Below are positions 3,934 through 35,702 of a stretch of DNA of 35,742 nt, in pieces. Where the stretch lies: the IMG/VR virus record IMGVR_UViG_3300010368_000038, positions 1 through 35,742 of that record; one strand, written 5' to 3'. This DNA comes from a virus. Made by a program: the position numbers and the translations under genes. Under the pieces are notes generated by a model. It saw nothing but the letters and a program-made list of their open reading frames with translations. It had not been told where the DNA came from and ran no database searches. The first letter of the stretch is position 1. Each line of letters opens with the position of its first letter.

Positions 3934-3948
3934 GGTTTTCTAAAACCC
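3933..3948 (+). terminator. Short palindromic hairpin after the first gene
   Basis: GGGTTTTCTAAAACCC is a perfect inverted repeat that begins on the last base of the stop codon. It could form a 5-7 bp stem with a tiny loop, but no T-run follows. It may be a weak terminator or an mRNA 3' end stabiliser. It directly precedes the candidate promoter motif at 3953. Confidence 0.3.
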
Positions 3949-3952
3949 GACA

Positions 3953-3960
3953 TATTTATA
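3953..3960 (+). promoter_or_regulatory. TATTTATA motif, candidate late promoter
   Basis: TATTTATA sits in the longer string CCGACATATTTAT, which recurs exactly at 28430-28442 ahead of another gene. The next start codon is 27 bases downstream. Promoter function is inferred only from recurrence and position. Confidence 0.5.
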
Positions 3961-3986
3961 TATAAACGCTAAAACAACAGCACAAA

Positions 3987-4745
3987 GTGGGATATTTAGA
4001 CAATACAACAGTAACAGTCGATGCTATATTGACTAACAAAGGACGAGAGATCCTTGCGGCAGGAGGCCGACTAAACATCGTAAAATTCGCTCTATCTGAC
4101 GATGAAGTGGATTACGATTTATGGAATCCAGCTCACACATTGGGAACAAATTATTACGGAAAAGTAATTGAAGACATGCCAGTTTTGGAAGCGCTTCCTG
4201 ATGAGACGCAGATGATGCGATACAAGCTACTTACTCTGCCTAAGGATGTTATCGGTATTCCGGTAATTAGTATACAGCCATCGGCTATTACATTCACTTC
4301 ATTAACTCAAGAGATTACAGTAAGACCAAGCACATTGAACTTACAAGGAGCAAATGAAACAAACGGATACACAGCTATTCTAAGTGACGATACAGTTGCT
4401 ACATTAGAGGTAGCATCTGACGGAGGAGTCCTTAGAGCTCCACGAGGAGGAGTAGCGCCATCTGGAAACACAGATTTAGCTAACGCTGCAACTAGTTTTA
4501 TCGACGACGAGACAACAAGTGTAGCAACAAGAGGTAAGTCAATAACTCGAACTGGTAGTAAGTTTGTTTTAAAAGCAAAACCGCAAGCAGACTTAACTAA
4601 AACAGTTAAAGCGTTGTTAACAATCGTAGGAAACGAAACTGGTGGATTCAAAACAATAATCATCACAGTTGATCCAACTAACTTTAATACACTAGACGTA
4701 GGAACAGCATCACCATCACCCGTTGGAGTAGCACCAGCACTTTAA
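3987..4745 (+). CDS. Conserved phage structural protein (MGYLDN family)
   Basis: This 252-residue protein starts at GTG (3987). The start is supported by the N-terminus MGYLDNTTVTVDAILTNKG, which I recognise from memory as the beginning of a family found beside tail/baseplate genes in many marine myoviruses. Residues 1-100 hold the conserved part (KFALSDDEVDYDLWNP, then VLEALPDETQMM). Residues 105-150 look like an Ig-like/Big-type beta domain (ISIQPSAITFTS, then LSDDTVATLEV). The C-terminus is Ala/Ser/Pro-rich. There is no signal peptide or membrane segment. It is followed 15 bases later by another structural gene and probably shares its transcript. The molecular role is not known to me; virion component is the best reading. 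Confidence 0.6.
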   Translation: MGYLDNTTVTVDAILTNKGREILAAGGRLNIVKFALSDDEVDYDLWNPAHTLGTNYYGKVIEDMPVLEALPDETQMMRYKLLTLPKDVIGIPVISIQPSAITFTSLTQEITVRPSTLNLQGANETNGYTAILSDDTVATLEVASDGGVLRAPRGGVAPSGNTDLANAATSFIDDETTSVATRGKSITRTGSKFVLKAKPQADLTKTVKALLTIVGNETGGFKTIIITVDPTNFNTLDVGTASPSPVGVAPAL

Positions 4746-4759
4746 TAAAAAAATAAGCA

Positions 4760-5827
4760 ATGGCAGAAATATATAAATCGTTTACCGGAGACGATATTGT
4801 AACAGGAGACACACAAATAATCTCTCAACCGGTCTGGTCAGAGAACATGAACCCATACTCACAGTCCTTTGGAGGATCGAGTGGAATTGGATTCTTTACC
4901 TCATCAGCGCAAGTATCGCAATCTGGGGAGTACTATGTAAACACATACCATAGAAACCCCGCCGATCCAAACGAATCAGCACAAGCAGCTATTCAGTTTG
5001 CAATTGCTTATGGTCACAGATTGGGTAGCGGATCTTATGGTGATCCAAATACAGTAGGACAAAATGAAAACGATACACCAACAAGAGCAATATACTCACA
5101 ATATCGTAACCAACTACTACCTCCAACAGACACAGCATTTACATTTGGTAGTGATACACCAGACGAAATCATTGTATTCAACATTGCAAGAGCAAGATTC
5201 AGACAAAAGATTGATCCAGGAAACTGGGAGCTAAGAATAGCATCAGGTACTTTAGCTAATGGAGCTACATCATATATGTCGTTCATAGACAATAGTGGTG
5301 AAGAAGAAACACCTACACTTAATGAAGCGGGTAGAGTAATTGGAATCTATAGTGGATCAGGAGCAGTAACAGCCTCTAACGCGGTTTACGGATTATTTTA
5401 TCCAGACCATGGGGTGTTTGTGTTCAATGCCACACGTTTAGCATCTGAAACTGGAATGCCAATTAATTCGGGATCAGCTGCGACACTGTCAGCTGCATCA
5501 ATTCAACCTAAAAACTCAGTAACAGCTTCCTTATACGTATCATCATCAACATACTTTGCTGCACGAAGCGAAGAGAAGGTGACAAGTACACACTACTTTG
5601 TTCGAGTGACTAACAAAAACTTTAACTTTTCTAACAACCCAACATTCGTAACGGGAAGCACAGGACAGTTTAGATTTGCTAGCATGTTGAGAAATCCAAG
5701 CGTTTATATTACTACAATTGGAATGTACGATGACAACAACAGATTAGTAGCAGTAGCTAAGTTAAGCAAGCCTTTGTTGAAAAGTTTTAATCGTGAGGCA
5801 CTTATAAAGGTAAAATTAGACTACTAA
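4760..5827 (+). CDS. Structural protein sharing N- and C-terminal modules with the 966-residue neighbour
   Basis: The protein has 355 residues and starts at ATG 4760 behind an A-rich leader. Its N-terminus, MAEIYKSFTGDDI, parallels MAGIFKNLDASDI in the product of 5910-8810. Its last 140 residues also match that protein: a DHGVFVF segment near residue 216, then FNFSNNPTF, then YITTIGMYDDNNRLVAVAKL ahead of the end. The middle (residues 60-210) is different and holds a predicted beta-rich region. The pattern suggests two paralogues built on the same attachment ends with exchanged central domains. A hairpin terminator follows the stop. It is probably a tail or baseplate component; no enzyme motif is seen. 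Confidence 0.6.
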   Translation: MAEIYKSFTGDDIVTGDTQIISQPVWSENMNPYSQSFGGSSGIGFFTSSAQVSQSGEYYVNTYHRNPADPNESAQAAIQFAIAYGHRLGSGSYGDPNTVGQNENDTPTRAIYSQYRNQLLPPTDTAFTFGSDTPDEIIVFNIARARFRQKIDPGNWELRIASGTLANGATSYMSFIDNSGEEETPTLNEAGRVIGIYSGSGAVTASNAVYGLFYPDHGVFVFNATRLASETGMPINSGSAATLSAASIQPKNSVTASLYVSSSTYFAARSEEKVTSTHYFVRVTNKNFNFSNNPTFVTGSTGQFRFASMLRNPSVYITTIGMYDDNNRLVAVAKLSKPLLKSFNREALIKVKLDY

Positions 5828-5855
5828 CAATCCTTATTACATTATAATAAGACAG

Positions 5856-5890
5856 ACCCGTGGACGCAGAGCGACTGCGGGTTTCTTTTT
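5856..5890 (+). terminator. Rho-independent terminator
   Basis: An ACCC...GGGT outer stem (5856-5859 with 5879-5882) encloses a GCAG/CTGC inner stem with an AGCGA loop, followed by TTTCTTTTT. It ends the 3987-5827 unit, and a TATTTATA motif follows eight bases later. Confidence 0.75.
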
Positions 5891-5897
5891 CTAAGCC

Positions 5898-5905
5898 TAT
5901 TTATA
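5898..5905 (+). promoter_or_regulatory. TATTTATA motif, candidate late promoter
   Basis: This is part of AGCCTATTTATA, a 12-mer found identically at 17451 and 26546. It lies between a terminator and the ATG at 5910, only four bases from it. If it is a -10-type element, the transcript would be nearly leaderless. Confidence 0.55.
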
Positions 5906-5909
5906 TACA

Positions 5910-8810
5910 ATGGCAGGTATATTCAAAAATCTCGATGCATCTGATATAAGGCTTACGCCTTTCCGATCACACAAAAAGTGGAATAGCACAATCTGTTACG
6001 ATGACTACTACACAAATGTACAAGCCAATCCAGAATCCATCGGGTTACTAGAAAACGAAGTGACACGAGTGTATGTTTCGGATGCGAGTTCAAGTCGCCT
6101 ATTAAAACTAAACCAGAGCGATAGGTACGAAATACTAGCAGACGAGATAGTGACCAATTTGACAGCAAGTGAGTATGGACAAGACTACGCAAGAAGCTAT
6201 GTAGCGTCTTATGGTACTAATGATTTAACAATGTCCGATTCTGATTTACAAGTTGCTGCTGGAGGAACCTATAGCAGTACGATTGTAAACCACATAACAG
6301 ACGTTTCGTATGCGGTATCATCTAGCAGCACATCCAGCTATATGTTTGTGGTTGGAGAGGGTGGAATATCAGGAAAGGAGTTTAGTACGCTTGATGGTAA
6401 CTTTATTGGCAGTGAGTATACACCAACAGGGATAGACGATGCAGTTACTGGATCATTTGTAGCAGTAAACGCTGAAGGTAAGCTAAATAACGATAAGATA
6501 GTTGCGTTAGTGTCGTCTGGATCTTTAGGTGTATTTGCGGTATCCTTTACTGGATCATACACGGATCCACTAAACGCGCAAACAAGTAGCTCAGTATCAC
6601 CTGGCAGTGCCTACGGATTTGGATTTTATGGAGCAAGTGTGTACGGAGAAAGCATTCCAGTAACATTAAAAACTTTTTTATATTGCGGAACGCAGGATCT
6701 ATACTTTGCTTTATTTGAAGACGGACTTTTGTATAAGGTACAACCTAATGCAACATCTACATTAGTAGCTGGTAACGTAGCTGAAATACTACAAAATAAG
6801 AGCAACTTTGTGTCAGGCTCAATTAATTACCAAACAAGTAAAATACACGTAGTGTATAATACCGGAGAAATTGGTATTGATTTAGTAGCAACAAACACTG
6901 GATACAACGAAGCTTCTTATGAAAAGTTAATAGATGCACGCCAATGGGCATCAAGAAAGCCTATTGTTAAGGCAACAATCCAACAAAATCAAACCCCTGC
7001 TACAATAGGAATTTTTGCAGGCACAACTAGTAGTCTAGCAGAGCAGGTATTCTTTACAATAAACCCAGATACTTACGAAATTGGCAATCCGTGTCACTTT
7101 GGAGCAACAAAGGGCGATATGCGTATTGGGGTGGGAAACAGGGCTGATAACAATATTGACGTATTTATAGGATTCAGTTCACTTTTTAGTGAAAGGTTTA
7201 TTGAGATGTCAAGCACAGAACCAGTATTTCAACTTTATAAAGCAGATTACAATCCTATTCCATCGCACCCAAGCTACAACCCATTAAATACGTTGTTTGA
7301 TCAAGGTAGTCCAACCTTTGATAGATATGAAGCTGTGACGTGGGAGGGTAAATTTCAACGAGTTGTACATAAATCTCTTAATCACTTATTCTACGAAAGC
7401 TTTTATGATAATACAAAAGCTGTGTTTGGAAACGGAAACATAAACAACCAAGTACGACTCATAGAGGACCAAGCATATATTATTGATCTTCCACAATCAA
7501 AATACGGAGAAGCCATCCAACAAAGTTCCGTAATCATAAACACAAGCTACAATATAAGCGGTAGTAACAATAATTCCCTCACAATTGTAGACGATCTTTT
7601 TGGCAACTTATACGTGTCTGGAGGATTAGTGTCTCCAGTAGATGCTACATACCAAGCATCAGGATCCATGTCGTTAAGTCCTGCGGGAGAGTGGCCGACA
7701 AAAGATTTGTATAAGTACAACGGAAAAGGAGCACAAAGCTTTACTAGCAGCTTTAATCAAGGAAACTGGCAAATGCAAACGGTATATAAAAACATTACGT
7801 TTACACAAATAACCGGATCTGAATTGCCTATACCATCACCAATTGATTTGCTAGGTGTTGTTCCTACATTTGACAGCTTAGTATCCTCAAGCATACATAT
7901 ATCACCATCTCAAGTTGGCGAATATCGTCAATCATATAATTTTGAAAACGGCGACTTTGCGATATCATTCATGATCAGACCTACAGAGGTTTCATCACAT
8001 CCATCTGGATCAATAGTACTAGCAAAACAAGGGCAAGCTGAGGATTATGGGGTGGATATTAATGGAAACGTATTTAGCTATTTGGCTAATACCAAATCAC
8101 CATATCGTATTCGAATGAATTCAAGCTATGAATTATTATTTGAACGCGACGATTTATTTGATTTAGCAGTAGTGTCGGGAAGCTTGACACAAAATCAACT
8201 ACATCACGTTGTAGCTATGAAAAGTGGCTCTAATTTGTATATGTATGTAGATAATACGCTAACTCAAACAGCTAGTGATCTATCAAATGCAAGCGCTTGT
8301 TCAAACAAGTCGGACATCTACATTGGAAACTTAGACACAAAAGAGAGAGGTTTTGATGGACTGATTGATAACGTGAAAATATACCCATCATCACTAGGGG
8401 AAGCAGATAGATCGTTATTATATCACACTCTAGGAAGAGGAACCACCATCGTTGGCAACGCTTTCTATAACCACGGAATGCTGGTGTTAGGATCAGTTAC
8501 ATCTCGCTTCATGGATATTAAAAGCGCAACTGCTCGAGGAACTCATACAATTTGGGAAAAGGAAATATCATGCACAGTAGGAGCAGGAGATTTCAATCGA
8601 ACAAACAATCCAACAATACAGCAATACAATCCGGTTACTAATCGATATGAGTTTAAAAGCTTCACAACTGGATCTGATTTCAAACCGTATGTCACATCTG
8701 TGGGTTTGTATGACGAGTACGGACAGCTGTTAGTGGTAGCAAAGTTAGGGTTTCCAATTAAGTTACCAAATAATGTAGATACAACGTTTATAATAAGATA
8801 TGACAAGTGA
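5910..8810 (+). CDS. Large structural protein with C-terminal LamG domain
   Basis: The protein has 966 residues and starts at ATG 5910. The N-terminus is MAGIFKNLDASDIRLTPF, followed by HKKW, a start I associate with myovirus baseplate or tail proteins. Residues 100-560 are repetitive beta sequence with several GNxxADNNIDVFIGFSS-like strands that could form a propeller, though I cannot prove this. Residues about 657-838 form a LamG domain (FAISFMIRP, then LHHVVAMKSGSNLYMYVDN, then FDGLIDNVKIYP). The last 110 residues match the end of the 355-residue upstream neighbour (FNRTNNPT, then YVTSVGLYDEYGQLLVVAKL). The LamG domain is thus inserted before a shared C-terminal module. A host-surface binding role is inferred from LamG; attachment to the virion through the shared ends is also inference. 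Confidence 0.65.
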   Translation: MAGIFKNLDASDIRLTPFRSHKKWNSTICYDDYYTNVQANPESIGLLENEVTRVYVSDASSSRLLKLNQSDRYEILADEIVTNLTASEYGQDYARSYVASYGTNDLTMSDSDLQVAAGGTYSSTIVNHITDVSYAVSSSSTSSYMFVVGEGGISGKEFSTLDGNFIGSEYTPTGIDDAVTGSFVAVNAEGKLNNDKIVALVSSGSLGVFAVSFTGSYTDPLNAQTSSSVSPGSAYGFGFYGASVYGESIPVTLKTFLYCGTQDLYFALFEDGLLYKVQPNATSTLVAGNVAEILQNKSNFVSGSINYQTSKIHVVYNTGEIGIDLVATNTGYNEASYEKLIDARQWASRKPIVKATIQQNQTPATIGIFAGTTSSLAEQVFFTINPDTYEIGNPCHFGATKGDMRIGVGNRADNNIDVFIGFSSLFSERFIEMSSTEPVFQLYKADYNPIPSHPSYNPLNTLFDQGSPTFDRYEAVTWEGKFQRVVHKSLNHLFYESFYDNTKAVFGNGNINNQVRLIEDQAYIIDLPQSKYGEAIQQSSVIINTSYNISGSNNNSLTIVDDLFGNLYVSGGLVSPVDATYQASGSMSLSPAGEWPTKDLYKYNGKGAQSFTSSFNQGNWQMQTVYKNITFTQITGSELPIPSPIDLLGVVPTFDSLVSSSIHISPSQVGEYRQSYNFENGDFAISFMIRPTEVSSHPSGSIVLAKQGQAEDYGVDINGNVFSYLANTKSPYRIRMNSSYELLFERDDLFDLAVVSGSLTQNQLHHVVAMKSGSNLYMYVDNTLTQTASDLSNASACSNKSDIYIGNLDTKERGFDGLIDNVKIYPSSLGEADRSLLYHTLGRGTTIVGNAFYNHGMLVLGSVTSRFMDIKSATARGTHTIWEKEISCTVGAGDFNRTNNPTIQQYNPVTNRYEFKSFTTGSDFKPYVTSVGLYDEYGQLLVVAKLGFPIKLPNNVDTTFIIRYDK

Positions 8811-8854
8811 TGGAAGATGATTACGATGACTGGTTTCCGGACCAAACAATTTGA
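8810..8854 (+). CDS. 14-codon acidic micro-ORF
   Basis: ATG at 8810 overlaps the TGA stop of the preceding gene by one base, and the frame MEDDYDDWFPDQTI ends two bases before the ATG of endonuclease I. The tight stop-start spacing on both sides fits translational coupling, and the peptide is strongly acidic. It may be a real micropeptide or only a coupling device. There is no homology evidence. Confidence 0.25.
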   Translation: MEDDYDDWFPDQTI

Positions 8855-8856
8855 AT

Positions 8857-9261
8857 ATGGTAAGACGAAAGGTTTCAAGAAGAGCAGCTGCTCGAAAAAA
8901 AGGATACAGAAGTGGGTTGGAGGAAGACATAGATGATACTCTAAAGGCTCAGGGCGTGGACGGTGAATATGAACAACACACAATAAAATACACTAAGCCA
9001 GCTACCAACCACACATATACTCCAGATTTTAAACTACCTAATGGAATCTTCATAGAAACAAAAGGTCGCTTTGTGTTAGAAGATAGAAAAAAACACTTGC
9101 TCATAAAGGAGCAACATCCAACCGCTGACATTCGCTTTGTGTTCCAAAATTCCAAAAACAAAATCCGAAAAGGATCAAAAACAACCTACGCAGATTGGTG
9201 TAAAAAGAATGGATTTCAATACAGCGATAAAACGATACCAATAAGTTGGTTAAACGAGTAA
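8857..9261 (+). CDS. T7-type endonuclease I (Holliday junction resolvase)
   Basis: This is a PD-(D/E)xK nuclease of the phage T7 gene 3 family, which cuts four-way junctions and other branched DNA before packaging. Catalytic residues are visible as E22 (SGLEED), D57 (YTPDF), E67 and K69 (IETKG). In T7 endonuclease I the corresponding residues are E20, D55, E65 and K67, so spacing is conserved exactly. I chose the ATG at 8857, giving 134 residues and an Arg/Lys-rich N-terminus; a TTG six bases upstream is possible but less likely. The gene lies directly before the primase and the gp47/gp46 fusion, which fits a recombination role. T4 itself uses the unrelated gp49, so this is a functional substitution. 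Confidence 0.88.
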   Translation: MVRRKVSRRAAARKKGYRSGLEEDIDDTLKAQGVDGEYEQHTIKYTKPATNHTYTPDFKLPNGIFIETKGRFVLEDRKKHLLIKEQHPTADIRFVFQNSKNKIRKGSKTTYADWCKKNGFQYSDKTIPISWLNE

Positions 9262-9270
9262 AATTATGTA

Positions 9271-9278
9271 TATTTAGT
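9271..9278 (+). promoter_or_regulatory. TATTTAGT variant of the recurrent motif
   Basis: GTATATTTAGTCT lies just before the ATG at 9281. It differs from TATTTATA in the last two bases. It also resembles the Bacteroidetes -7 element TAnnTTTG (TATATTTA at 9269), so a host-type promoter is an alternative reading. Confidence 0.4.
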
Positions 9279-9280
9279 CT

Positions 9281-13386: not shown

Positions 13387-13391
13387 CATAC

Positions 13392-13399
13392 TATTTATA
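13392..13399 (+). promoter_or_regulatory. TATTTATA motif inside a perfect palindrome
   Basis: The motif is the centre of ATACTATTTATAGTAT (13388-13403), with 7-base arms around TT. The palindrome touches the ATG at 13404. It could be a promoter, an operator-like site or an mRNA hairpin at the start codon. Confidence 0.5.
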
Positions 13400-13403
13400 G
13401 TAT

Positions 13404-16939: not shown

Positions 16940-17479
16940 ATGATAAACAATAGCAAAATCAGAAACGTACAAACAAAGTTTCCACCAATCGAGGGATTGG
17001 TAAACGGAGAAACTCTAGGTAAGATTAGATTGAAAAATCTATATCCTAGTTGGAATGGAGAGAATGTGAACGACATTAAAGCTAAGCACGATAATAATCC
17101 ATACCTAGTACGCATAGGAACGCCAGGAACAGATAATCAGCTTAAAAACGACAGACTATACTTCATATCACACTACCTTTCCTACAATCCAATCACACAA
17201 GATATCGAAGATCGAGATATCATTACACGACGAGTGATGGATAGGTTGTATGTAGGACAGACGACTTTAGAGGGGGATTATGATAACTATAAAATGTTTG
17301 TTAATGGCAACATAGTAGCAAATGATATGTTTCTAACACAAAGCGATAAGATCAGCAAAGTATCGTTAACCAAGTTAGTAGTAAAGCTGCTCGATAGAGT
17401 GGATCAGCTTTCAAAAGAAGTAGCGCAATTGAAGGTTAAAACGAAAACGAAGCCTATTTATACAAAAGATTCTAATTAG
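16940..17479 (+). CDS. Small fibre-like structural protein with C-terminal coiled coil
   Basis: The protein has 179 residues. The middle contains DNYKMFVNGNIVANDMFLT, the kind of VNGNIxAxxx segment that often marks the end of trimeric phage fibre domains. After it comes a heptad-rich helix (LTKLVVKLLDRVDQLSKEVA, residues about 145-172) fit for trimerisation. The N-terminus is basic and polar with no signal. It closes a run of three structural genes with almost no spacing. The recurrent promoter-like motif lies inside its last codons (17455-17462), so the next unit's signal is embedded in this gene. Fibre or connector role is inference. Confidence 0.45.
   Translation: MINNSKIRNVQTKFPPIEGLVNGETLGKIRLKNLYPSWNGENVNDIKAKHDNNPYLVRIGTPGTDNQLKNDRLYFISHYLSYNPITQDIEDRDIITRRVMDRLYVGQTTLEGDYDNYKMFVNGNIVANDMFLTQSDKISKVSLTKLVVKLLDRVDQLSKEVAQLKVKTKTKPIYTKDSN
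17455..17462 (+). promoter_or_regulatory. TATTTATA motif within the 3' end of a coding sequence
   Basis: An exact AGCCTATTTATA copy (17451-17462) encodes part of the C-terminal KPIYTK segment and lies 17 bases before the ATG at 17480. A 12-mer match in coding sequence just before a new gene block argues for selection on the motif itself. Confidence 0.5.
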
Positions 17480-24254: not shown

Positions 24255-24273
24255 ACACATAAAGCATTAAGTT

Positions 24274-24624
24274 ATGACTATAAACAGATACCATATTATC
24301 GGGCTTGCGTTGTACACAGCGTTAATCGTAACACTCACCTATTTATTATTAAGACCTAACACCAATGTGAATGGGCTATCAACACAAGATCAAAAATATG
24401 TGGATAGTCTAAACATACGCATTGGAGAACTGGAAGGTCAGCAAAAAGTGAGTGACAGCTTAATAGCTAATTACAAAAAGGATATAGAAGTATTGGATCA
24501 TAAAATTGATTCAACTAAAAACAAAGTTATACAAATACGCAAGGATTATGAAGGCAAAATTAAAGATATTAGTAGGTACACTCCTACTCAGCTCGATAAC
24601 TTTTTCACAGACAGATACAAGTAA
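24274..24624 (+). CDS. Membrane-anchored coiled-coil protein, i-spanin-like
   Basis: The protein has 116 residues. One N-terminal transmembrane helix (about 8-27, IIGLALYTALIVTLTYLLL) with few preceding residues suggests an N-in, C-periplasmic orientation. A long charged coiled coil follows (residues 45-100), ending in YTPTQLDNFFTDRYK. This is the layout of Rz-type inner-membrane spanins. The next gene starts inside it in another frame (77-base overlap), as for Rz/Rz1 pairs. No endolysin or holin is seen nearby. Spanin function is inferred from topology and overlap. Confidence 0.55.
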   Translation: MTINRYHIIGLALYTALIVTLTYLLLRPNTNVNGLSTQDQKYVDSLNIRIGELEGQQKVSDSLIANYKKDIEVLDHKIDSTKNKVIQIRKDYEGKIKDISRYTPTQLDNFFTDRYK

Positions 24625-24976
24625 TCAATTAAGCAAAGACTCTACTGTATGTTTACCAGCTAGCATTGCTAGGCAGGTAGCGGCAGATTTGGTTTCCTAT
24701 GATTTGTGCAAGGAAGAGCTAACTAGCACTGAACAGCTTAACAAGCTACTGAATGAAAAAAATGAACAGCTATCGAAGGCATTTCTTGAAAAGGAGAAAC
24801 AGTATGACCTGTGCAAAGTTGAAGTTGATTTGCTTAAGGAGAAAAGCGACGTATATGAGCAGGCTGCTATTGATCTAGCAAATAAGAATCGTAAATTAAA
24901 AAACACATCTATTGTATTAGGAACGACTACCGGAGTATCTGTGTTATTGGTAGTACTATTATCGATATTGAAATAA
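24548..24976 (+). CDS. Exported coiled-coil protein overlapping the upstream gene, spanin partner candidate
   Basis: I place the start at ATG 24548 (142 residues), because it opens directly with a signal peptide: MKAKLKILVGTLLLSSITFS then Q, a cleavage region typical of Flavobacteriia. A TTG 42 bases upstream would add a basic stretch and is less likely. The mature part is a Glu/Lys-rich coiled coil with paired cysteines (YDLCKEEL, then YDLCKVEV). A C-terminal hydrophobic helix (TSIVLGTTTGVSVLLVVLLS) could anchor it in the inner membrane. There is no lipobox, so it is not a classical o-spanin. Its stop overlaps the terminase start by one base. Confidence 0.55.
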   Translation: MKAKLKILVGTLLLSSITFSQTDTSNQLSKDSTVCLPASIARQVAADLVSYDLCKEELTSTEQLNKLLNEKNEQLSKAFLEKEKQYDLCKVEVDLLKEKSDVYEQAAIDLANKNRKLKNTSIVLGTTTGVSVLLVVLLSILK

Positions 24977-26547
24977 TGAGTCAAGACGTAAACCTAAAAC
25001 AACTTATAAGAGCTGAGTACATCAGGTGTGCTAAGGATCCGGTTTATTTCATGAAAAAATACTGCCTGATTCAGCATCCAACTAAAGGAAAGATACCATT
25101 CAAGTTATTTCCATACCAGGAAGAGCTTACAAATGATATTCAAGAAAACGACAGGGTAGTCATACTCAAGTCAAGGCAGCTAGGGATATCAACCTTATCA
25201 GCGGGGTACTCGTTGTGGACTATGCTGTTTCAGAGTGACAAAAACATACTTGTAGTAGCGATAGATCAAAACACATCCAAAAACCTTGTAACAAAGGTTA
25301 GTGTAATGTTTGAGAATCTACCTAGTTGGCTTAAAATGAGAACCACTGAAAAGAATAAGTTATCGCTTAGACTTGCAAATGGATCACAAATCAAAGCTGT
25401 AGCAAGCTCAGGAACATCAGGACGTTCAGAAGCATTATCGTTAGTGATTATTGATGAGGCTGCGTTCGTTGATAATGCAGAAGAGTTATGGGCATCACTA
25501 CAACAAACGCTATCAACCGGAGGTAGAGGTATCATACTTAGTACACCAAATGGAACCGGTAACTTCTTCCACAAAATATGGGTAAAGTCAGAGGAAGGGC
25601 GAAACTCATTCTTTACCAAAAGGCTTCCGTGGCAAGTACATCCAGAAAGGGATCAAGAGTGGAGAGATAGACAGGATGAGGAATTAGGATTGAGACTTGC
25701 AGCACAGGAGTGTGACTGTGATTTTAGCACATCAGGTAATACAGTCGTACATCCAGAAATGCTAACATTCTACAGAGAAACCTACATGCAAGATCCACTA
25801 GAAAAGCGTGGTTTTGATAGTAACTTATGGGTATGGGAGATTCCAAACTACTCAAAGGACTATGTGGTCGTAGCCGATGTCGCCCGAGGAGATGGATCTG
25901 ACTTTTCAGCTTTCCACGTAATTGATATAGAAGAAGCAACTCAAGTAGCAGAATATAAAGGACAAGTCACAACAAAGGATTACGGAAATATGCTTGTGTC
26001 CATAGCTACGGAATACAATGACGCATTGCTAGTAATAGAGAACGCAAACATAGGATGGGCAACAATACAACAAGTAATAGACCGTGGATATAGAAACCTT
26101 TATTACACACCAAAAGATATAGGCCTCGATTCAGATCGTTATCTAGCTCGAGCCACGGATGTACAAAGAACAAAAGATCAAGTAGCAGGGTTTACAATGT
26201 CATCAAAAGTGAGACCTTTAATTATTTCGAAGATGGAGTTGTATATGCGAGAAAAAAGTTGTATAATAAGGAGTAGAAGATTGCTTGATGAGCTTGGTGT
26301 ATTTGTATGGCGAAATGCACGAGCAGAGGCACAATCAGGATATAACGATGACTTGGTTATGAGTTGGTGTATGGGATTATGGGTTAGAGACACAGCCTTA
26401 AAGTTAAGGCAGGCTGGAATAGAGCTTACTAAGAGAGCATTAACCCATGCCAAATCGACCGGTGTATATAAGTCTGGCCAGACAAACACTGCATGGAAGA
26501 TGAATACTAATAAGGGTGATCAAGAAGACTTGAATTGGTTATTGTAG
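24976..26547 (+). CDS. 17: Terminase large subunit (gp17-like)
   Basis: This is the packaging motor ATPase and headful nuclease. The ATPase half shows a Walker A variant KSRQLGIST (65-73), Walker B LVIIDEAAF (about 156-164) and the coupling motif STPNGTG (about 191). The RNase H-fold nuclease half shows VADVARGDGSDF (about 299), LVIENANIG and GYNDDLVMSW (about 456), giving the usual Asp triad. At 523 residues it is shorter than T4 gp17 (610), mainly at the ends. The start overlaps the upstream stop (TAATG). No small terminase subunit is recognised in the window. The portal gene follows 28 bases later. Confidence 0.95.
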   Translation: MSQDVNLKQLIRAEYIRCAKDPVYFMKKYCLIQHPTKGKIPFKLFPYQEELTNDIQENDRVVILKSRQLGISTLSAGYSLWTMLFQSDKNILVVAIDQNTSKNLVTKVSVMFENLPSWLKMRTTEKNKLSLRLANGSQIKAVASSGTSGRSEALSLVIIDEAAFVDNAEELWASLQQTLSTGGRGIILSTPNGTGNFFHKIWVKSEEGRNSFFTKRLPWQVHPERDQEWRDRQDEELGLRLAAQECDCDFSTSGNTVVHPEMLTFYRETYMQDPLEKRGFDSNLWVWEIPNYSKDYVVVADVARGDGSDFSAFHVIDIEEATQVAEYKGQVTTKDYGNMLVSIATEYNDALLVIENANIGWATIQQVIDRGYRNLYYTPKDIGLDSDRYLARATDVQRTKDQVAGFTMSSKVRPLIISKMELYMREKSCIIRSRRLLDELGVFVWRNARAEAQSGYNDDLVMSWCMGLWVRDTALKLRQAGIELTKRALTHAKSTGVYKSGQTNTAWKMNTNKGDQEDLNWLL

Positions 26548-26549
26548 CC

Positions 26550-26557
26550 TATTTATA
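26550..26557 (+). promoter_or_regulatory. TATTTATA motif, candidate late promoter
   Basis: This is the third exact AGCCTATTTATA copy (26546-26557). Here it runs into AAATAAAT, so the site also contains TATAAATA, the T4 late box, on the coding strand (TTTATAAATA). It lies 18 bases before the portal start. Confidence 0.6.
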
Positions 26558-26575
26558 AATAAATAATAAAATTAG

Positions 26576-28417
26576 ATGGCAGAGAAAGATTCCAATCTAT
26601 TTAATAGATTAAGAAAACTCTTTAGTACCGATGTAATTATTCGTAATGTCGGAGGAAAGCAGTTAAAAGTAATCGATACCGACCGCATACAATCCTCTGG
26701 AAACTTAGAGAATAATTCGCGAGTGGATAGGTTTCAACGTATGTATGGAACTGGACTTACAGCATACTCTGGTATGGGTCAAGTCTTACAGGCAACTCGT
26801 TTAGAGTTGTTTCGTGATTATGAAGCGATGGATACAGATAGCATTATATCATCCGCTTTAGACATATATGCAGATGAGTGTACTGCAAAAGATGAGTTTG
26901 AGGATACCTTAACAATAAACACAACAAACGATCAAATACAGAAAGTCCTTCATAATTTATTTTATGACATAATGAACATTGAGTTTAATTTATGGCCATG
27001 GGTACGTAACACACTAAAGTATGGAGACTTTTTCCTTCACCTAGATATAACTGAGAAATTCGGTATCACAAACGTAGAGCCAATCTCAGCCTATGAGATG
27101 ATTCGCGAAGAGGGAACAGATCCACAATTTCCTAACAAAGTGACTTTTAAAAGAGATTTCACTGTAGGGATGATAAATTCTAGCACAGTGTATCGTAGAG
27201 ATGTGGAGGAATACGACAACTATGAGATTGCTCACTTTCGACTACTCAACGACACTAATTTCTTACCATACGGACGTTCCCTACTAGAACCTGCGAGAAA
27301 GGTTTGGAAGCAGTTAACTTTGATGGAGGATGCAATGTTGATTCACAGAATCATGCGAGCACCAGATAAGCGTGTTTTCAAGATAGACATCGGTAACATA
27401 CCACCAAACGAGGTTGATGCGTTCATGGAGGCAATGGTCAATAAGATGAAAAAGGTGCCTTTTATAGACGAGAATACTGGAGATTACAACTTAAAGTATA
27501 ACATGCAGAACATACTCGAAGACTTCTACTTACCGGTACGTGGTCAAGAAAATGGAACAGACATACAAACTACTCCAGGGTTGCAGATGGATGCAATTCC
27601 AGATATCGAGTATCTGCAGAACAGAATGCTAGGTTCGTTAAAAATTCCAAAAGCATACTTGGGATTCTTAGAAGATACTACTGGAAAAGCTTCACTAGCA
27701 TCACAAGACTTTAGATTTGCACGAACAATCGAGCGTGTACAAAAAATTATAGTTTCAGAGTTAACTAAGATTGCAATCGTACACTTGTACGCACAAGGAT
27801 TCACGGACGAGGAGATAGTTGATTTTTCATTAAAATTAACCCCACCATCAACATACTACGAAAGAGAAAAATTAGAGTTATGGACTAGTAAGGCGACTCT
27901 TGCAGGGGATTTGGTAGAGAAGAAGTTGTTTAGTAGATTTTGGTGCTACGAACACATTTTCAATATGTCACCAGAGCAGTGGATGGAAGAGCAGGAGCGT
28001 ATTGCAGCAGATTCAAAGGAATTCTTCCGTCTTGAGCAGATTAAAACCGAAGGTAATGATCCAAAGAAGACTGGACAATCATTTGGTACGGCACATGACA
28101 TTGCTAGTCTATACAAAGGTGATGCAGGAGTTCCAAAAGGATACGATGAGAAAGAGGTTCCGGAAGGAGGATGGCCTGGAGCTGGAAGACCGGAAGAGCC
28201 TGGAACCTATGGAAAACATGAACATCCACTAGGTTGGGACCCAATGGGACATAAGCAGAATAAAGCAGCTGGAAAGGTTGTGTATGAGTCTCAGAGTTTG
28301 GATCAATTTAAAGGATTAAAGGATTCTTTAAAAAAATCACAAGCTGTACGTAGCACATACGCTCCGGATCAGAAAAACCATGGGCTTCTTAGCGAAGAAA
28401 ACCTCCTAGATGAGTAG
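26576..28417 (+). CDS. 20: Portal vertex protein (gp20-like)
   Basis: This protein would form the dodecameric ring at the head vertex that docks the terminase and starts prohead assembly. Recognition rests on the T4 gp20-type core: DTDSIISSALDIYADECT, NLWPWVRNTLKYGDFFLHLD, the FLPYGRSLLEPARKVWKQ segment, APDKRVFKIDIGNIP, and GFLEDTTGKASLASQDFRFA. At 613 residues it is longer than T4 gp20 (524), with a Gly/Pro-rich C-terminal tail (about 520-613). Two copies of LSEEN/LLDE-like residues end the chain. Its position between gp17 and the core/protease genes matches T4 order apart from the missing sheath and tube genes. Confidence 0.93.
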   Translation: MAEKDSNLFNRLRKLFSTDVIIRNVGGKQLKVIDTDRIQSSGNLENNSRVDRFQRMYGTGLTAYSGMGQVLQATRLELFRDYEAMDTDSIISSALDIYADECTAKDEFEDTLTINTTNDQIQKVLHNLFYDIMNIEFNLWPWVRNTLKYGDFFLHLDITEKFGITNVEPISAYEMIREEGTDPQFPNKVTFKRDFTVGMINSSTVYRRDVEEYDNYEIAHFRLLNDTNFLPYGRSLLEPARKVWKQLTLMEDAMLIHRIMRAPDKRVFKIDIGNIPPNEVDAFMEAMVNKMKKVPFIDENTGDYNLKYNMQNILEDFYLPVRGQENGTDIQTTPGLQMDAIPDIEYLQNRMLGSLKIPKAYLGFLEDTTGKASLASQDFRFARTIERVQKIIVSELTKIAIVHLYAQGFTDEEIVDFSLKLTPPSTYYEREKLELWTSKATLAGDLVEKKLFSRFWCYEHIFNMSPEQWMEEQERIAADSKEFFRLEQIKTEGNDPKKTGQSFGTAHDIASLYKGDAGVPKGYDEKEVPEGGWPGAGRPEEPGTYGKHEHPLGWDPMGHKQNKAAGKVVYESQSLDQFKGLKDSLKKSQAVRSTYAPDQKNHGLLSEENLLDE

Positions 28418-28435
28418 TCTTTATAAATTCCGACA

Positions 28436-28443
28436 TATTTATT
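28436..28443 (+). promoter_or_regulatory. TATTTATT variant in a CCGACATATTTAT repeat
   Basis: CCGACATATTTAT at 28430-28442 is identical to the copy at 3947-3959. It sits in the 45-base gap after the portal gene, 19 bases before the ATG at 28463. Confidence 0.5.
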
Positions 28444-28462
28444 ACTAGGACATATATATAAT

Positions 28463-32087: not shown

Positions 32088-32131
32088 AACAAACCGATTA
32101 CAATACAATAATTTTTTTACAAAAACAACGC

Positions 32132-32147
32132 TCAAAACGCGTTTTGA
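32132..32147 (+). terminator. Palindromic hairpin after the core operon
   Basis: TCAAAACGCGTTTTGA is a perfect 16-base palindrome followed by TTATTTCTTATAC. It may be a weak intrinsic terminator or an RNA-processing/stability element at the end of the 28463-32087 unit; the T-run is interrupted. Confidence 0.4.
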
Positions 32148-32165
32148 TTATTTCTTATACTATGT

Positions 32166-32246
32166 ATGAGTAAATACGCTATCCTTATATGGCGTCCTAA
32201 AACAAACAATTCACATTGCAACTCCAATAGTTGTAGGACGTTCTAA
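32166..32246 (+). other. Possible 26-codon leader ORF upstream of the scaffold gene
   Basis: ATG at 32166 opens a frame (MSKYAILIWRPKTNNSHCNS...) that ends 10 bases before the scaffold ATG. It covers the whole inverted-repeat region. It could be a regulatory leader peptide or chance; no independent support. Confidence 0.2.
32193..32240 (+). promoter_or_regulatory. Structured 5' leader of the scaffold/capsid operon
   Basis: CGTCCTA (32193-32199) pairs with TAGGACG (32234-32240) and encloses a second hairpin, CAACT-CCAAT-AGTTG (32219-32233), that abuts it. The element lies 16 bases before the scaffold start. The rest of the 169-base gap holds only the palindrome at 32132 and a TATACT-like box near 32156. 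It may stabilise or regulate the most highly expressed mRNA of the phage. Confidence 0.5.
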
Positions 32247-32256
32247 AAAATCAAAA

Positions 32257-33189
32257 ATGAACAAATTATTAAAAGATGCAATCGCAGACGCAAAAGCTGT
32301 TAGAGAAACTGCTTTAGCTAATGCAAAGATGGCACTCGAAGAAGCATTCGCTCCAAAGCTGCAATCAATGCTTTCTCACAAAATCAAAGAAGAGATGGAA
32401 GAGGAAGAGCCGATGGCAGAAATGGAAGACGAAGATGAGATGACAATGGAAATGGATTACGAAGATGAAATGAAGTCTGAAGGTGAAGGCGGAGACGCTG
32501 AAATGGAAGATGAGGTTGAATCAGAAGAAGACATGGAAGTTTCTGATGAAGGTTCTGAGGAAGAGGCATCAGCTGAAGCCGAAGAAGAAGAAATGTCTGA
32601 TGAGGAATTAGAAGAGATTCTAAGAGAATTAGAAGGCGAAGAAGACGAAATGGCTACTGAAGGTGAAATGGCTGATGAAGAAGATGCTATGAACGAAGAA
32701 GAAGACATGGAAGCTGAAGAAGAGGAAATCGACTTAGAAGAAATCATCCGAGCTCTACGCGAAGAAGAAGGTGAAGAGGATACGATGGAAGAAGAGGAAG
32801 ACATGGAAGCTGAGGCTGAGTTAGAAGAGGCTTATGAAGTTATCAAATTCTTACGAAGCAAACTTAACGAAGTAAACTTGTTAAACGCTAAATTACTTTA
32901 CGTGAACAAGCTATTCAAGAGAGCTGAATTAAGCGAGGCTAAGAAGGTTAAGATCATCGAAACTTTTGATCGAGTGACAAATGTAAGAGAAGCTAAGTTG
33001 GTATATGCTACATTGGCAGAATCAATGACACCAAATGCTCCGATTGCAAACAACAAGAAAGTTGTGAAACGTACAAAAAGAGGATTGACTGAAGGTATCG
33101 CTTCTGCTCCAAGCAAAGCTACTAGAAAGCCAATCATTGAAAACACAGTTTACAACCGATTTAACGAATTAATTAACTACAACAAGTAA
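32257..33189 (+). CDS. 22: Prohead core scaffold protein (gp22-like)
   Basis: The protein has 310 residues. The N-terminal helix (MNKLLKDAIADAKAVRETAL) contains MALEE|A. A very acidic Glu/Asp/Met tract occupies residues 45-190. The conserved C-terminal part is helical (YEVIKFLRSKLNEVNLLNAK; LFKRAELSEAKKVKIIETFD; NVREAKLVYATLAES) and resembles gp22 of T4-like phages. Several L-x-E sites (ELSE|A, TLAE|S) fit a scaffold that is digested and expelled on maturation. Its place directly before gp23 supports the call. The acidic repeat is low complexity, and its length may vary between relatives. T4 gp22 is 269 residues. Confidence 0.85.
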   Translation: MNKLLKDAIADAKAVRETALANAKMALEEAFAPKLQSMLSHKIKEEMEEEEPMAEMEDEDEMTMEMDYEDEMKSEGEGGDAEMEDEVESEEDMEVSDEGSEEEASAEAEEEEMSDEELEEILRELEGEEDEMATEGEMADEEDAMNEEEDMEAEEEEIDLEEIIRALREEEGEEDTMEEEEDMEAEAELEEAYEVIKFLRSKLNEVNLLNAKLLYVNKLFKRAELSEAKKVKIIETFDRVTNVREAKLVYATLAESMTPNAPIANNKKVVKRTKRGLTEGIASAPSKATRKPIIENTVYNRFNELINYNK

Positions 33190-33207
33190 AATAAAACCAA
33201 CGAAAAA

Positions 33208-34803
33208 ATGAATTTATTCGAAGGAATGGGAGAAACCAATAGAAGTGTAGAAAACAAAGCACTTATCTCCAAATGGTCTAGAACAGGCCTACTAGAAGGA
33301 CTTGGTTCTAAGAGTGAAGAAGCTACTGTAGCTGTCATGTTAGAAAACCAAGCAAAACAACTTTTGAAGGAAGGATCTGCTACTACAGCTGGTACCGCTG
33401 GTGCTGGATATGAGCAGTGGACTGGAGTTGCTCTTCCGTTGATCAGACGAGTATACGCTGAAATCGCAGCAAAGGAATTTGTTAGCGTTCAGCCAATGAA
33501 CTTGCCATCAGGATTAGTATTCTATCTTGACTTCAAATACTCTAACGATAAAAACCCATTTGGATTTGATCCAGAAGGACAAAACCAAACTGGTACATTA
33601 CAAGGTATCACAGACACCACTGGAGATCCGTCTGATGGTCTTTACGGAGCTGGTCGTTTTGGGTACTCTATCAAGAATGTTGCAGGAACTGCTGGTGCAA
33701 TAACAACTGGATCAGTGAGCGCTGCTGACGTATTCTACGATGGTAACTACACTGCATCTATTGCACAATACGCTGCTGTAGCTGTAGCAACATCATCTAT
33801 GTCAGCACTTGATTTAGAAGGTGTTCGATCTTTCCGATTATTCTCAGGATCTACTGAATTAACTGTACTTCCTGCATTTACGCAAGTAGTGGGTGGTAAC
33901 GTACAATTCGTTGTAACTGGAACTGCAGTATCAACTGGATCTTTCACAGCTAACGTATCTTACTCAGTACAGCCTACTAACGATGACAGAGGTGACTTCG
34001 AAGCTAAGCCAGTTTCTTCTACAAACAGAGACTTAGATACAGACTTGAACATTCCAAGCATCGAATTGCAAATGCGTTCGATTCCAGTAACTGCTAAGAC
34101 TCGTAAATTGAAAGCAAGCTGGACTCCAGAATTCGCTCAAGACCTTAACGCTTACCACTCTGTGGATGCTGAAGGAGAATTGACAGCTATGTTGTCTGAG
34201 TACGTTTCAATGGAAATTGACTTAGAGATCTTAGATATGTTGATCAACTCTGCAGCTACACAAGACTACTGGTCAGCTAAAGTTGGTCAAGAGTATGACG
34301 CTGCTTCTAACTCGTTTGTACAATCTCAATTCAACGGTCAAGCATATATCCAAGGTACTTGGTTTGCAACTTTAGGTACTAAAGTTCAAAAAGTATCTAA
34401 CGATATCCACGCTAAGACTTTGAGAGGTGGTGCTAACTTCTTAGTATGTTCTCCACGTATTTCAACAATCATGGAATCAATCCCAGGATTTGCTGCTAAT
34501 ACAGACGGAAACAAAATGAAGTATGCAATGGGAGTTCGTAACATAGGATCGATCGCAAGCTCGTACGATGTTTACAAAAACCCTTACATGCAAGAGAACA
34601 CAATCTTGATGGGATTCAGAGGTAGCCAATTCTTGGAAACTGGAGCTGTTTATGCACCATATGTTCCATTAATGTTGACTCCTTTAGTGTACGATCCAAA
34701 CAACTTTACGCCACGTAGAGGGGTAATGACAAGATATGCTAAACTTGTAACAAGACCCGAGTTTTACGGACGTATCAACGTTGCTGATCTTAACATCCTT
34801 TAA
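33208..34803 (+). CDS. 23: Major capsid protein precursor (gp23-like)
   Basis: The protein has 531 residues (T4 gp23 has 521). It shows the T4 gp23 pattern: an N-terminal propeptide with SKWSRTGLLEGLGSKSEE and VMLENQAKQLLKE, a predicted cut at LLKE|G after residue 55, then the mature start region (VALPLIRRVYAEIAAKEFVS; VQPMNLPSGLVFYLDF). Later blocks include RKLKASWTPEFAQDLNAYH, LVCSPRISTIMESIPGF, and a C-terminal YAPYVPLMLTPLVYDPNNFT. Codon choice is more uniform, with many GCT, GGT and TCT codons, as expected for very high expression. A strong terminator follows within 25 bases. No gp24 vertex paralogue is seen in the window. Confidence 0.95.
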   Translation: MNLFEGMGETNRSVENKALISKWSRTGLLEGLGSKSEEATVAVMLENQAKQLLKEGSATTAGTAGAGYEQWTGVALPLIRRVYAEIAAKEFVSVQPMNLPSGLVFYLDFKYSNDKNPFGFDPEGQNQTGTLQGITDTTGDPSDGLYGAGRFGYSIKNVAGTAGAITTGSVSAADVFYDGNYTASIAQYAAVAVATSSMSALDLEGVRSFRLFSGSTELTVLPAFTQVVGGNVQFVVTGTAVSTGSFTANVSYSVQPTNDDRGDFEAKPVSSTNRDLDTDLNIPSIELQMRSIPVTAKTRKLKASWTPEFAQDLNAYHSVDAEGELTAMLSEYVSMEIDLEILDMLINSAATQDYWSAKVGQEYDAASNSFVQSQFNGQAYIQGTWFATLGTKVQKVSNDIHAKTLRGGANFLVCSPRISTIMESIPGFAANTDGNKMKYAMGVRNIGSIASSYDVYKNPYMQENTILMGFRGSQFLETGAVYAPYVPLMLTPLVYDPNNFTPRRGVMTRYAKLVTRPEFYGRINVADLNIL

Positions 34804-34827
34804 GAGAGTAATACTCACGATAAAATT

Positions 34828-34853
34828 AGCCCTTCTTCGGAAGGGCTTTTTTT
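34828..34853 (+). terminator. Strong Rho-independent terminator after the capsid gene
   Basis: AGCCCTTC and GAAGGGCT form a perfect 8-bp stem around a stable TTCG tetraloop, followed by seven Ts. It closes the head operon. Confidence 0.92.
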
Positions 34854-34899
34854 ATGCCTACTTCTACGGCTTTGGTGTTCTACGGACATAGTTATAAGC

Positions 34900-35459
34900 A
34901 TGGAAAAGCATTACATATATAAACTAACAAGCCCAAGTGGCAAGGTGTACATCGGTCGAACAAATGATTTTGAAAAAGAATGATAAGCCACCTAAGTACA
35001 GCTAATCAGGGGGAGAAGCGAAAGTTGTACACTGCAATTAGAAAGTACGGATGGGATAATTTTACAAAAGAAATTATAGCAGAAATACAAGGAGAGAGGG
35101 CAGCACAAGTGCAAGAATTGTACTACATTACAGAGTATAATAGTTTTCATAACGGATACAACTGCACAATCCAGACCGGAGGAGGTGATAACTGGAAAGA
35201 CAAAAGAGGTACGGAGCAATGGAAGGAGTTTAAAGCCTTGATGAAATCTTTAAATCAATCAGGAAGAATGCACGGAAAGACCCACACCCCAGAAACAAAA
35301 GCCAAACTACGAGCAGCAGCAAAGGGCAGATTCTCCCTCCCTTGGTTCCAAGACAAGTATGGACAAGAAGAAGGTTTAGCTAAATACGAAGAACGTAGAA
35401 ACTTCCTCAAGAATCGAAAAATAAACAAAGACGCCAATGGTAAATTTATCCCCTCCTAG
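34900..35459 (+). pseudogene. Frameshifted GIY-YIG homing endonuclease with NUMOD3 region
   Basis: The first frame starts at ATG 34900 and gives MEKHYIYKLTSPSGKVYIGR then TNDFEKE and a TGA at 34981. The second frame opens at ATG 34980 with ISHLSTANQ and continues with KLYTAIRKYGWDNF, normal GIY-YIG sequence, to 35459. Adding one A to the A5 run at 34973-34977 would read EKRMISHL and join them into about 186 residues. The C-terminal half has a NUMOD3-like DNA-binding motif (HGKTHTPETKAKLRAAAKGR). It is a free-standing homing endonuclease of the Seg type. It could be a decayed element, a sequencing error in the homopolymer, a -1 slip, or a split gene reinitiating at the ATGA overlap. Confidence 0.8.
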
Positions 35460-35474
35460 TGAGGGGTTTTTTTT
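35450..35474 (+). terminator. Rho-independent terminator overlapping the endonuclease stop
   Basis: CCCCTC and GAGGGG form a 6-bp stem around CTAGT, which contains the stop codon of the GIY-YIG gene, then eight Ts follow. It insulates the element from downstream genes. Confidence 0.88.
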
Positions 35475-35519
35475 GGAAAAAATTAGGTAAACTGTTGCAA
35501 AAACGAATATAAGGGGTGA

Positions 35520-35527
35520 TATTTACT
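35520..35527 (+). promoter_or_regulatory. TATTTACT variant of the recurrent motif
   Basis: TATTTACT abuts the ATG at 35528. A TTG at 35495 lies 22 bases upstream, so a host-type Bacteroidetes promoter is possible too. Confidence 0.3.
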
Positions 35528-35587
35528 ATGTCAAAAGAGATAGAGTATAAATTAAAAATAATAAGTTATGAGAGAAGTATTAATTAA
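35528..35587 (+). CDS. Tiny 19-codon ORF
   Basis: MSKEIEYKLKIISYERSIN begins right after a promoter-like motif and overlaps the 29-codon ORF at 35568 in another frame. It may be a leader peptide or chance. Confidence 0.2.
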   Translation: MSKEIEYKLKIISYERSIN

Positions 35588-35657
35588 AGGTTTAGGATTA
35601 AGTTGTTTAATTATTTTAGTATATATTATAGGATTTATATTATTGTTCGGTGAATAG
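35568..35657 (+). CDS. 29-residue putative single-pass membrane peptide
   Basis: MREVLIKGLGLSCLIILVYI continues as IGFILLFGE, a single hydrophobic helix with a basic N-terminus. The A-rich leader AAAATAATAAGTTATGA resembles the leaders at 20022 and 35723. Small membrane peptides are common in phage early regions; function unknown. It lies in an AT-rich stretch (35475-35742) that otherwise holds only promoter-like motifs and one gene start. Confidence 0.45.
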   Translation: MREVLIKGLGLSCLIILVYIIGFILLFGE

Positions 35658-35694
35658 TTAATTAGGGATTAAAGTTAGTAAAATAAAATTTGTA

Positions 35695-35702
35695 TATTTA
35701 GG
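35695..35702 (+). promoter_or_regulatory. TATTTAGG variant, candidate promoter
   Basis: GTATATTTAGG lies 33 bases before the ATG at 35736 and matches the motif form seen at 9269-9277 (GTATATTTAG). It could equally be a Bacteroidetes -7 box (TATATTTA). Confidence 0.35.

What the first reader, a model, noticed from the sequence alone, without database searches (positions are those of the whole stretch)
3947..35702. Recurrent TATTTATA motif marks nearly every transcription-unit start, in inverted orientation to the T4 late box
Sites at 3953, 5898, 13392, 17455, 20970 and 26550 read exactly TATTTATA; variants are at 9271, 28436, 35520 and 35695. Three share AGCCTATTTATA and two share CCGACATATTTAT. 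They fall almost only in the short gaps ahead of genes, and one is inside coding sequence just before the 17480 block. T4 late promoters read TATAAATA in the direction of transcription; here the + strand carries the reverse complement although all genes are +. This may be a new late sigma specificity in a Bacteroidetes T4-like phage. At 5898, 9271 and 13392 the start codon is 2-4 bases away, which would mean leaderless mRNAs if the motif acts as a -10 element.
Basis: partly seen in the sequence, partly recalled or inferred. Interest (0 to 1): 0.75.

Follow-up and report, generated by a model that had tools for sequence, protein, structure and literature searches.

The report
New late-promoter box in Bacteroidota phages
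A large group of T4-like viruses that infect Bacteroidota bacteria marks its late genes with the DNA word TATTTATA, probably read by a virus-made RNA-polymerase specificity protein so far annotated only as hypothetical, and many of these messages seem to begin right at the start codon.

Summary
The motif is real. In the window, 6 of 8 plus-strand TATTTATA copies end within 40 nt of a start codon (p 3e-8). It is the first- or second-ranked upstream 8-mer in each of six complete or long genomes of the same T4-like clade, and its orientation follows the genes. In 13 terL-portal gaps TATTTAT is invariant while the flanks diverge. T4 shows TATAAATA instead, and Rhodothermus phage RM378 shows TATTTAAA.

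Class A, [AC]TATTTATN, has no -33 element and precedes structural genes. Class B, AGTTG-N20-TATATTTAG (9269, 35518; 35695 in part), matches the host sigma-A promoter and precedes early or replication genes.

The window is a fragment without a sigma gene. Relatives encode one: immuto gp118, 'hypothetical', with hundreds of homologues in viral contigs. It weakly matches T4 late sigma and Sigma70_r2, and its predicted fold matches sigma region 2, T4 gp55 included. No sliding clamp was detected.

About a quarter of boxes lie 3-5 nt before ATG, some with conserved N-termini and a terminator just upstream, as leaderless mRNAs would. No RNA data exist. One huge phage with the sigma lacks the motif.

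The parts
3953..3960 (+). class A box TATTTATA, 26 nt before the GTG start at 3987
   Evidence: the immuto orthologue has the box 19 nt before its start
5857..5892 (+). terminator-like stem (CCCG..CGGG) with a T-rich tail, directly upstream of the 5898 box
   Evidence: read from sequence; the tail and box are kept in relatives
5898..5905 (+). class A box TATTTATA, 4 nt before ATG 5910; candidate leaderless promoter
   Evidence: box-N4-ATG and N-terminus MAG[IV]FK[NS]LD conserved in relatives
9246..9277 (+). class B (host sigma-A-like) promoter TTG-N20-TATATTTAG before the primase and gp46-like genes, 3 nt before ATG 9281
   Evidence: kept in the closest relatives
13392..13399 (+). class A box TATTTATA, 4 nt before ATG 13404; candidate leaderless promoter
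   Evidence: box-N4/5-ATG and N-terminus conserved in relatives
17455..17462 (+). class A box TATTTATA inside the 3' end of gene 16940-17479, 17 nt before ATG 17480
   Evidence: box kept upstream of the orthologues in L009, L011, L017 and L024
20970..20977 (+). class A box TATTTATA, 19 nt before ATG 20997
26550..26557 (+). class A box TATTTATA in the terL-portal gap, 18 nt before portal ATG 26576
   Evidence: TATTTAT invariant in 13 terL-portal gaps
28436..28443 (+). class A variant TATTTATT after the portal gene, 19 nt before ATG 28463
   Evidence: eighth base degenerate; immuto has TATTTATA at the matching place, 122479
35495..35526 (+). class B-like TTG-N20-GATATTTAC, 1 nt before ATG 35528
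   Evidence: read from sequence, compared with the class B logo
35693..35702 (+). class B-like TATATTTAGG box, approximate position, without a clear TTG at the usual distance
   Evidence: read from sequence
24976..26547 (+). terminase large subunit
   Evidence: phrog_2 E 4e-47
26576..28417 (+). portal protein, T4 gp20 type
   Evidence: phrog_213 E 8e-65
33208..34803 (+). major capsid protein, T4 gp23 type
   Evidence: phrog_138 E 2e-71

Best explanation
TATTTATA (consensus [AC]TATTTATN) is the -10-like box of the late promoters of a clade of T4-like Bacteroidota phages (Immutovirus and relatives, including this window). Shown: clade-wide enrichment just upstream of genes, orientation that follows gene direction, conservation against diverged flanks, absence of a -33 element, and association with structural genes. 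Inferred: early and replication genes are transcribed first from host sigma-A-type promoters (class B); one such unit probably includes the gp118-family gene, which encodes a sigma factor with a region-2 fold; that sigma redirects host RNA polymerase to TATTTATA boxes, the first of which lies directly after the sigma gene. Transcription would start about 4-6 nt after the box, so that where the ATG lies 3-5 nt after the box the mRNA would be leaderless.
For: Enrichment in the window, in immuto with its RefSeq gene table and rank 1-2 of upstream 8-mers in six genomes; 132-fold enrichment in pooled relatives with sharp loss on single-base change; sense bias 129:8 and 24:1; flips on minus-strand genes; footprint; no -33 element; sits before terL, portal, sheath, tube and tape measure genes in immuto. 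Sigma: weak matches to late sigma, Sigma70_r2 and another phage sigma family; predicted fold matches sigma factors including T4 gp55, Z 10.0; conserved family; box follows the sigma gene in immuto and G005. RM378 has a sigma homologue and a related box.
Against: No RNA or protein experiment. The sigma family does not match T4 gp55 significantly by profile-profile comparison or any PDB chain by sequence. LR756508 has a 40% identical sigma homologue but no TATTTATA enrichment in the 100 kb examined. 'Late' rests on gene content. Boxes share T and A positions with the host -7 box, so host sigma-A could contribute.
Confidence: 0.78

Rival explanations
1. TATTTATA is a weak form of the host sigma-A -7 box (TAnnTTTG), used without any phage sigma, for instance with a phage activator or a modified polymerase.
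For: Aligned at -12 to -5, TATTTATA shares T-12, A-11, T-8 and T-6 with TAnnTTTG (host positions from PMC6847099). Class B boxes in the same genomes contain TATTTA.
Against: Class A lacks the TTG at -33 that class B keeps, lacks G at -5, and is found before other genes than class B. A sigma-like protein is encoded by the same phages.
Confidence: 0.12
2. An RNA-level element (translation enhancer or processing site) in the mRNA leader rather than a promoter.
For: It lies near start codons; Bacteroidota translation depends on A-rich positions before ATG (PMC6847099).
Against: Distance to ATG varies from 3 to 42 nt. It is concentrated in gaps, sometimes right after terminators, and absent from most closely packed genes. 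The layout matches T4 late promoters: a lone 8-bp box with AT-rich DNA after it and nothing at -35 (PMC2988020).
Confidence: 0.06
3. The boxes are ordinary T4 late promoters on the opposite strand, making antisense RNA.
For: The reverse complement of TATTTATA is exactly the T4 box.
Against: Sites hug start codons of sense genes, are kept with fixed spacing to them, and turn with gene direction in Mel-JY01 and G001. TATAAATA itself is far rarer in the sense direction.
Confidence: 0.02
4. Chance: AT-rich gaps produce an AT-rich word.
For: Gaps are AT-richer than genes.
Against: Dinucleotide shuffles of the upstream zones give 0.16 against 6 observed; the reverse complement, of identical composition, is not matched in number; rank 1-2 of all 8-mers in six genomes; footprint.
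Confidence: 0.01

Closest known systems
T4 late promoters with gp55, gp33 and gp45 (PMC2988020)
   Same: A lone 8-bp AT box near the -10 position, nothing conserved at -35, before head and tail genes of T4-type; a phage sigma with a region-2 fold.
   Different: Box is TATTTATN instead of TATAAATA; many boxes lie too close to ATG for a leader; the sigma is hardly similar in sequence and has a C-terminal helical domain of unknown kind; no clamp homologue detected in immuto or G005.
Bacteroidota sigma-A promoter TTTG / TAnnTTTG (PMC6847099, PMC9723704)
   Same: Class B sites match it (TTG, 20 nt, TATATTTAG). Class A shares some T and A positions.
   Different: Class A has no -33 element and no G at the box end.
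Rhodothermus phage RM378
   Same: T4-like portal, a homologue of the sigma family by profile (E 8e-7), and a directional upstream box starting TATTTA with spacing as short as 5 nt.
   Different: The box is TTATTTAAAnnAAAA.
Aeh1-type and other variant T4 late promoters (cited in PMC2988020)
   Same: Precedent for drift of the T4 late box among T4 relatives (a/gC in place of TA at -13/-12 in Aeh1).
   Different: There the changed bases are the first two; here positions 4 and 5 change.

Membership tests
T4 late promoter system | box TATAAATA read in the direction of transcription | tested here: not met
   TATTTATA sense, TATAAATA rare, in six genomes; T4 control gives TATAAATA
T4 late promoter system | no conserved element at -35 | tested here: met
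   site logos of 24 immuto and 145 deduplicated clade sites
T4 late promoter system | drives late (structural) genes | tested here: inconclusive
   by gene content only, before terL, portal, sheath, tube and tape measure genes in immuto; no expression data
T4 late promoter system | gp55-family sigma | tested here: inconclusive
   phrog_234 E 0.0083 in immuto, 8 of 28 members, fold match to 7d7c gp55 Z 10.0; hhalign not significant
T4 late promoter system | sliding clamp gp45 as activator | tested here: inconclusive
   no phrog_223 match in immuto or Mel-JY01; no T4 clamp or loader homologue in immuto or G005, a gp44-like loader in Mel-JY01
T4 late promoter system | co-activator gp33 | not tested
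   no gp33 profile was run
Sigma-70 family | region 2 fold and sequence | tested here: inconclusive
   PF04542 weak in 14 of 28 members, best E 0.01, none at genome level; fold ranking almost all sigma factors, but helical folds give middling Z easily
Sigma-70 family | region 4 | tested here: inconclusive
   C-terminal domain folded alone (pLDDT 90) has no convincing match, best Z 5.2
Bacteroidota sigma-A promoter (class A sites) | TTG near -33 | tested here: not met
   no upstream information in logos
Bacteroidota sigma-A promoter (class B sites) | TTG at -33 and a TAnnTTTG-like -7 box | tested here: met
   AGTTG-N20-TATATTTAG logo, with A before the final G instead of the consensus; window sites 9246-9277 and 35495-35526
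Leaderless mRNA | promoter so close to a genuine start codon that no leader fits | tested here: met
   box-N4-ATG with N-terminus conserved from Met1 for 5910 and 13404; spacing peak at 3-5 nt
Leaderless mRNA | 5' end at or next to the AUG | not testable with these tools
   needs 5'-end RNA sequencing

The most novel reading that the evidence does not exclude
A late-transcription system distinct from T4's: a diverged sigma family, conserved across aquatic Bacteroidota T4-like phages and in RM378, that reads TATTTATA (TATTTAAA in RM378) without a sliding clamp and sets the start site at the AUG itself, so that a sizeable share of late mRNAs are leaderless in hosts where leaderless mRNAs are rare (5.5% of mapped mRNAs in F. 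psychrophilum, PMC9723704).
Probability: 0.4. Interest if true: 0.78.

Novelty: new variant of a known kind. Interest (0 to 1): 0.63.

Why it matters
It assigns a likely function to a protein family with hundreds of homologues in viral contigs that is annotated as hypothetical in the cultured Immutovirus genome. It gives a promoter map for a phage group common in aquatic metagenomes. It offers a natural comparison for how T4-type late sigmas change box specificity (TATAAATA, TATTTATA, TATTTAAA), and a test of whether late transcription in T4 relatives can be uncoupled from the replication clamp. Cultured phage and host exist, so it can be tested directly.

Tried and rejected
Pfam Sigma70_r2 at genome level: no hit in immuto, Mel-JY01 or four IMG/VR records. 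phrog_12791: only T4. PDB sequence search with the sigma alignment: nothing. Profile-profile of the sigma family against T4 gp55: not significant. C-terminal domain alone (pLDDT 90): no convincing fold match; best is the sigma54 core-binding domain at Z 5.2. LR756508: no recognisable box despite the sigma homologue; TTTTTAA and TATTTAA are only mildly enriched. T4-box-on-the-opposite-strand idea rejected by orientation data. Literature: no paper in the held library with TATTTATA as a phage promoter and no Bacteroidota T4-like late-promoter paper among the titles and abstracts seen; most subscription journals and all bioRxiv preprints are missing from that library.
Full report
WHAT THE WINDOW IS. 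The window is a 35.7-kb viral record. All its likely genes are on the + strand. They include T4-type head genes: terminase, portal, prohead protease and major capsid protein, plus primase and a gp46-like exonuclease subunit. The nearest isolates by portal protein are Microcystis phage Mel-JY01 and Flavobacterium phage immuto (51-53% identity). A 165.6-kb IMG/VR contig (G005) with 72% identical primase serves as a long close relative.

CHECK OF THE OBSERVATION. Two further + strand copies lie inside genes (586, 7162). Six of eight + strand copies end within 40 nt upstream of a start codon, against 0.26 expected from the zone's share of the window (p 3e-8). Dinucleotide shuffles of those zones average 0.16 copies and never exceed 3.

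GENOME-WIDE TESTS. In immuto, with its RefSeq gene table, TATTTATA is the most over-represented intergenic 8-mer, 24 intergenic against 6 coding. In G005 the intergenic ratio of sense to antisense is 24 to 1. With uniform gene calling, TATTTATA ranks first or second among upstream 8-mers in six genomes: immuto, G005, G001, G007, G008 and Mel-JY01. Pooled relatives give 278 copies in 33.7 kb of unique upstream positions against 134 in 2.15 Mb of coding sequence, 132-fold. Single-base changes cut this sharply except at position 8, where T, C and G keep 55-, 39- and 13-fold. The preceding base is A or C in 387 of the 404 cases where it was scored. Pooled contigs are related, so their counts are not independent; the six separate genomes and the footprint are the firmer evidence.

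ORIENTATION. Around portal genes there are 129 sense against 8 antisense copies. In Mel-JY01 two minus-strand genes carry the motif flipped, 42 and 40 nt before their starts. G001, deposited mostly on the minus strand, has 35 sense against 4 antisense there. The same pipeline on T4 recovers TATAAATA in the sense direction, with no TATTTATA upstream of tandem genes, so the difference from T4 is real. RM378 shows TATTTAAA in the sense direction, 17 upstream against 5 coding, and 7 to 1 over its reverse complement in tandem pairs.

FOOTPRINT. In 13 terL-portal gaps, from phages whose portals are 51-85% identical to the window's, TATTTAT is invariant while the flanks diverge. The box inside the coding end before gene 17480 is also kept in relatives.

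TWO CLASSES. Site logos separate class A, [AC]TATTTATA with A-rich positions 4-5 nt further and no upstream element, from class B, AGTTG-N20-TATATTTAGG. Class B matches the published Bacteroidota promoter TTTG / TAnnTTTG (PMC6847099; PMC9723704). In immuto class B sits mainly before small genes at 60-76 kb, and class A before terminase, portal, sheath, tube, tape measure and fibre genes among others. In the window, 9269 and 35518 are class B and 35695 is class B-like.

A CANDIDATE SIGMA. A T4 late-sigma profile found one weak match in immuto, gp118 at 78174-78872 (E 0.0083). This 232-aa protein has a strongly conserved family: a capped scan returned 600 related stretches in viral contigs. Among 50,697 phage records tblastn found it only in the four immuto records, Mel-JY01 and LR756508; a profile also finds RM378 (E 8e-7). 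Half of 28 members weakly match Sigma70_r2, eight match the late sigma family and six another phage sigma family. The predicted structure (pLDDT 76.5) aligns best with sigma factors, which fill nearly all of the top 50 rows, among them T4 gp55 in 7d7c (Z 10.0, 124 residues) and sigmaE in 1or7 (Z 9.5, rmsd 2.5). Each line is weak alone; together they make a sigma the most likely identity. A class A box is the first promoter-like feature after the sigma gene in both immuto and G005. In immuto the nearest promoter-like site upstream of the sigma gene is class B at 76214.

START SITES AND LEADERS. In unique upstream regions the distance from box to ATG peaks at 3-5 nt (115 of about 430), nearly vanishes at 7-8, and then spreads over 9-42. 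Grouped into 68 protein families, 14 have a modal spacing of 3-5. For gene 5910 the arrangement of terminator-like stretch, box, four bases and ATG is kept in most relatives, and the protein is conserved from its first residue. Gene 13404 behaves likewise with four or five bases. The host -7 box spans -12 to -5; a box in that place puts +1 on the A of an ATG four bases downstream. Leaderless mRNAs are therefore the simplest reading, though rare in the hosts (5.5% in F. psychrophilum). Read-through from upstream could still supply leaders.

CLAMP. T4 late transcription is activated by the sliding clamp (PMC2988020). No clamp match was found in immuto or Mel-JY01, and no T4 clamp or loader homologue in immuto or G005; Mel-JY01 has a gp44-like loader. 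Absence of a hit is not proof of absence. gp33 was not searched for.

WHAT DOES NOT FIT. LR756508 has a 40% identical sigma homologue but no TATTTATA enrichment in the 100 kb examined. Either its box differs, or the sigma-box link is not universal. No expression data were available; 'late' is inferred from gene content.

VERDICT. A real, conserved and directional late-promoter box, new in sequence for T4-like phages as far as the held literature shows, with a plausible phage sigma and a likely leaderless subset. It is a new variant of a known kind.

Noticed in passing
window 34885-35459: A GIY-YIG homing-endonuclease-like gene after the major capsid gene appears split: the N-terminal motif (MEKHYIYKLTSPSGKVYIGRTNDFEKE) ends in a stop in one frame, and the rest (ORF 34980-35459, phrog_314) continues in another.
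   Followed up: no
window 24274-24976: Two overlapping genes (24274-24624 and 24506-24976), each with an N-terminal hydrophobic stretch and a coiled-coil-like remainder, just before terminase; the arrangement resembles a nested spanin pair.
   Followed up: no
G005 reverse complement and L257-L267, upstream of primase: In some relatives the primase gene has GTATAGTTA where the window has TATATTTAG; TATAGTTA is also enriched in G005 gaps. Possibly a drifted class B box.
   Followed up: no
Mel-JY01 PP395634 (L093-L096): Listed host is the cyanobacterium Microcystis, yet its portal, its sigma homologue and its TATTTATA box group it with Flavobacterium phage immuto; the host assignment may deserve a check. 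It also carries a gene annotated as ribosomal protein S21.
   Followed up: partly
LR756508.1 95-195 kb (L230, L231): Huge phage with a close homologue of the sigma but no TATTTATA enrichment; its late box, if any, is unidentified.
   Followed up: partly
immuto NC_055915 48955, window 26550, L106-L160: Some upstream regions carry the motif in a palindromic context (TATTTATAAATA, TATTTATATATAAATA) or TATAAATA apart from any TATTTAT; 34 unique regions had TATAAATA alone. Their meaning is not explained.
   Followed up: partly
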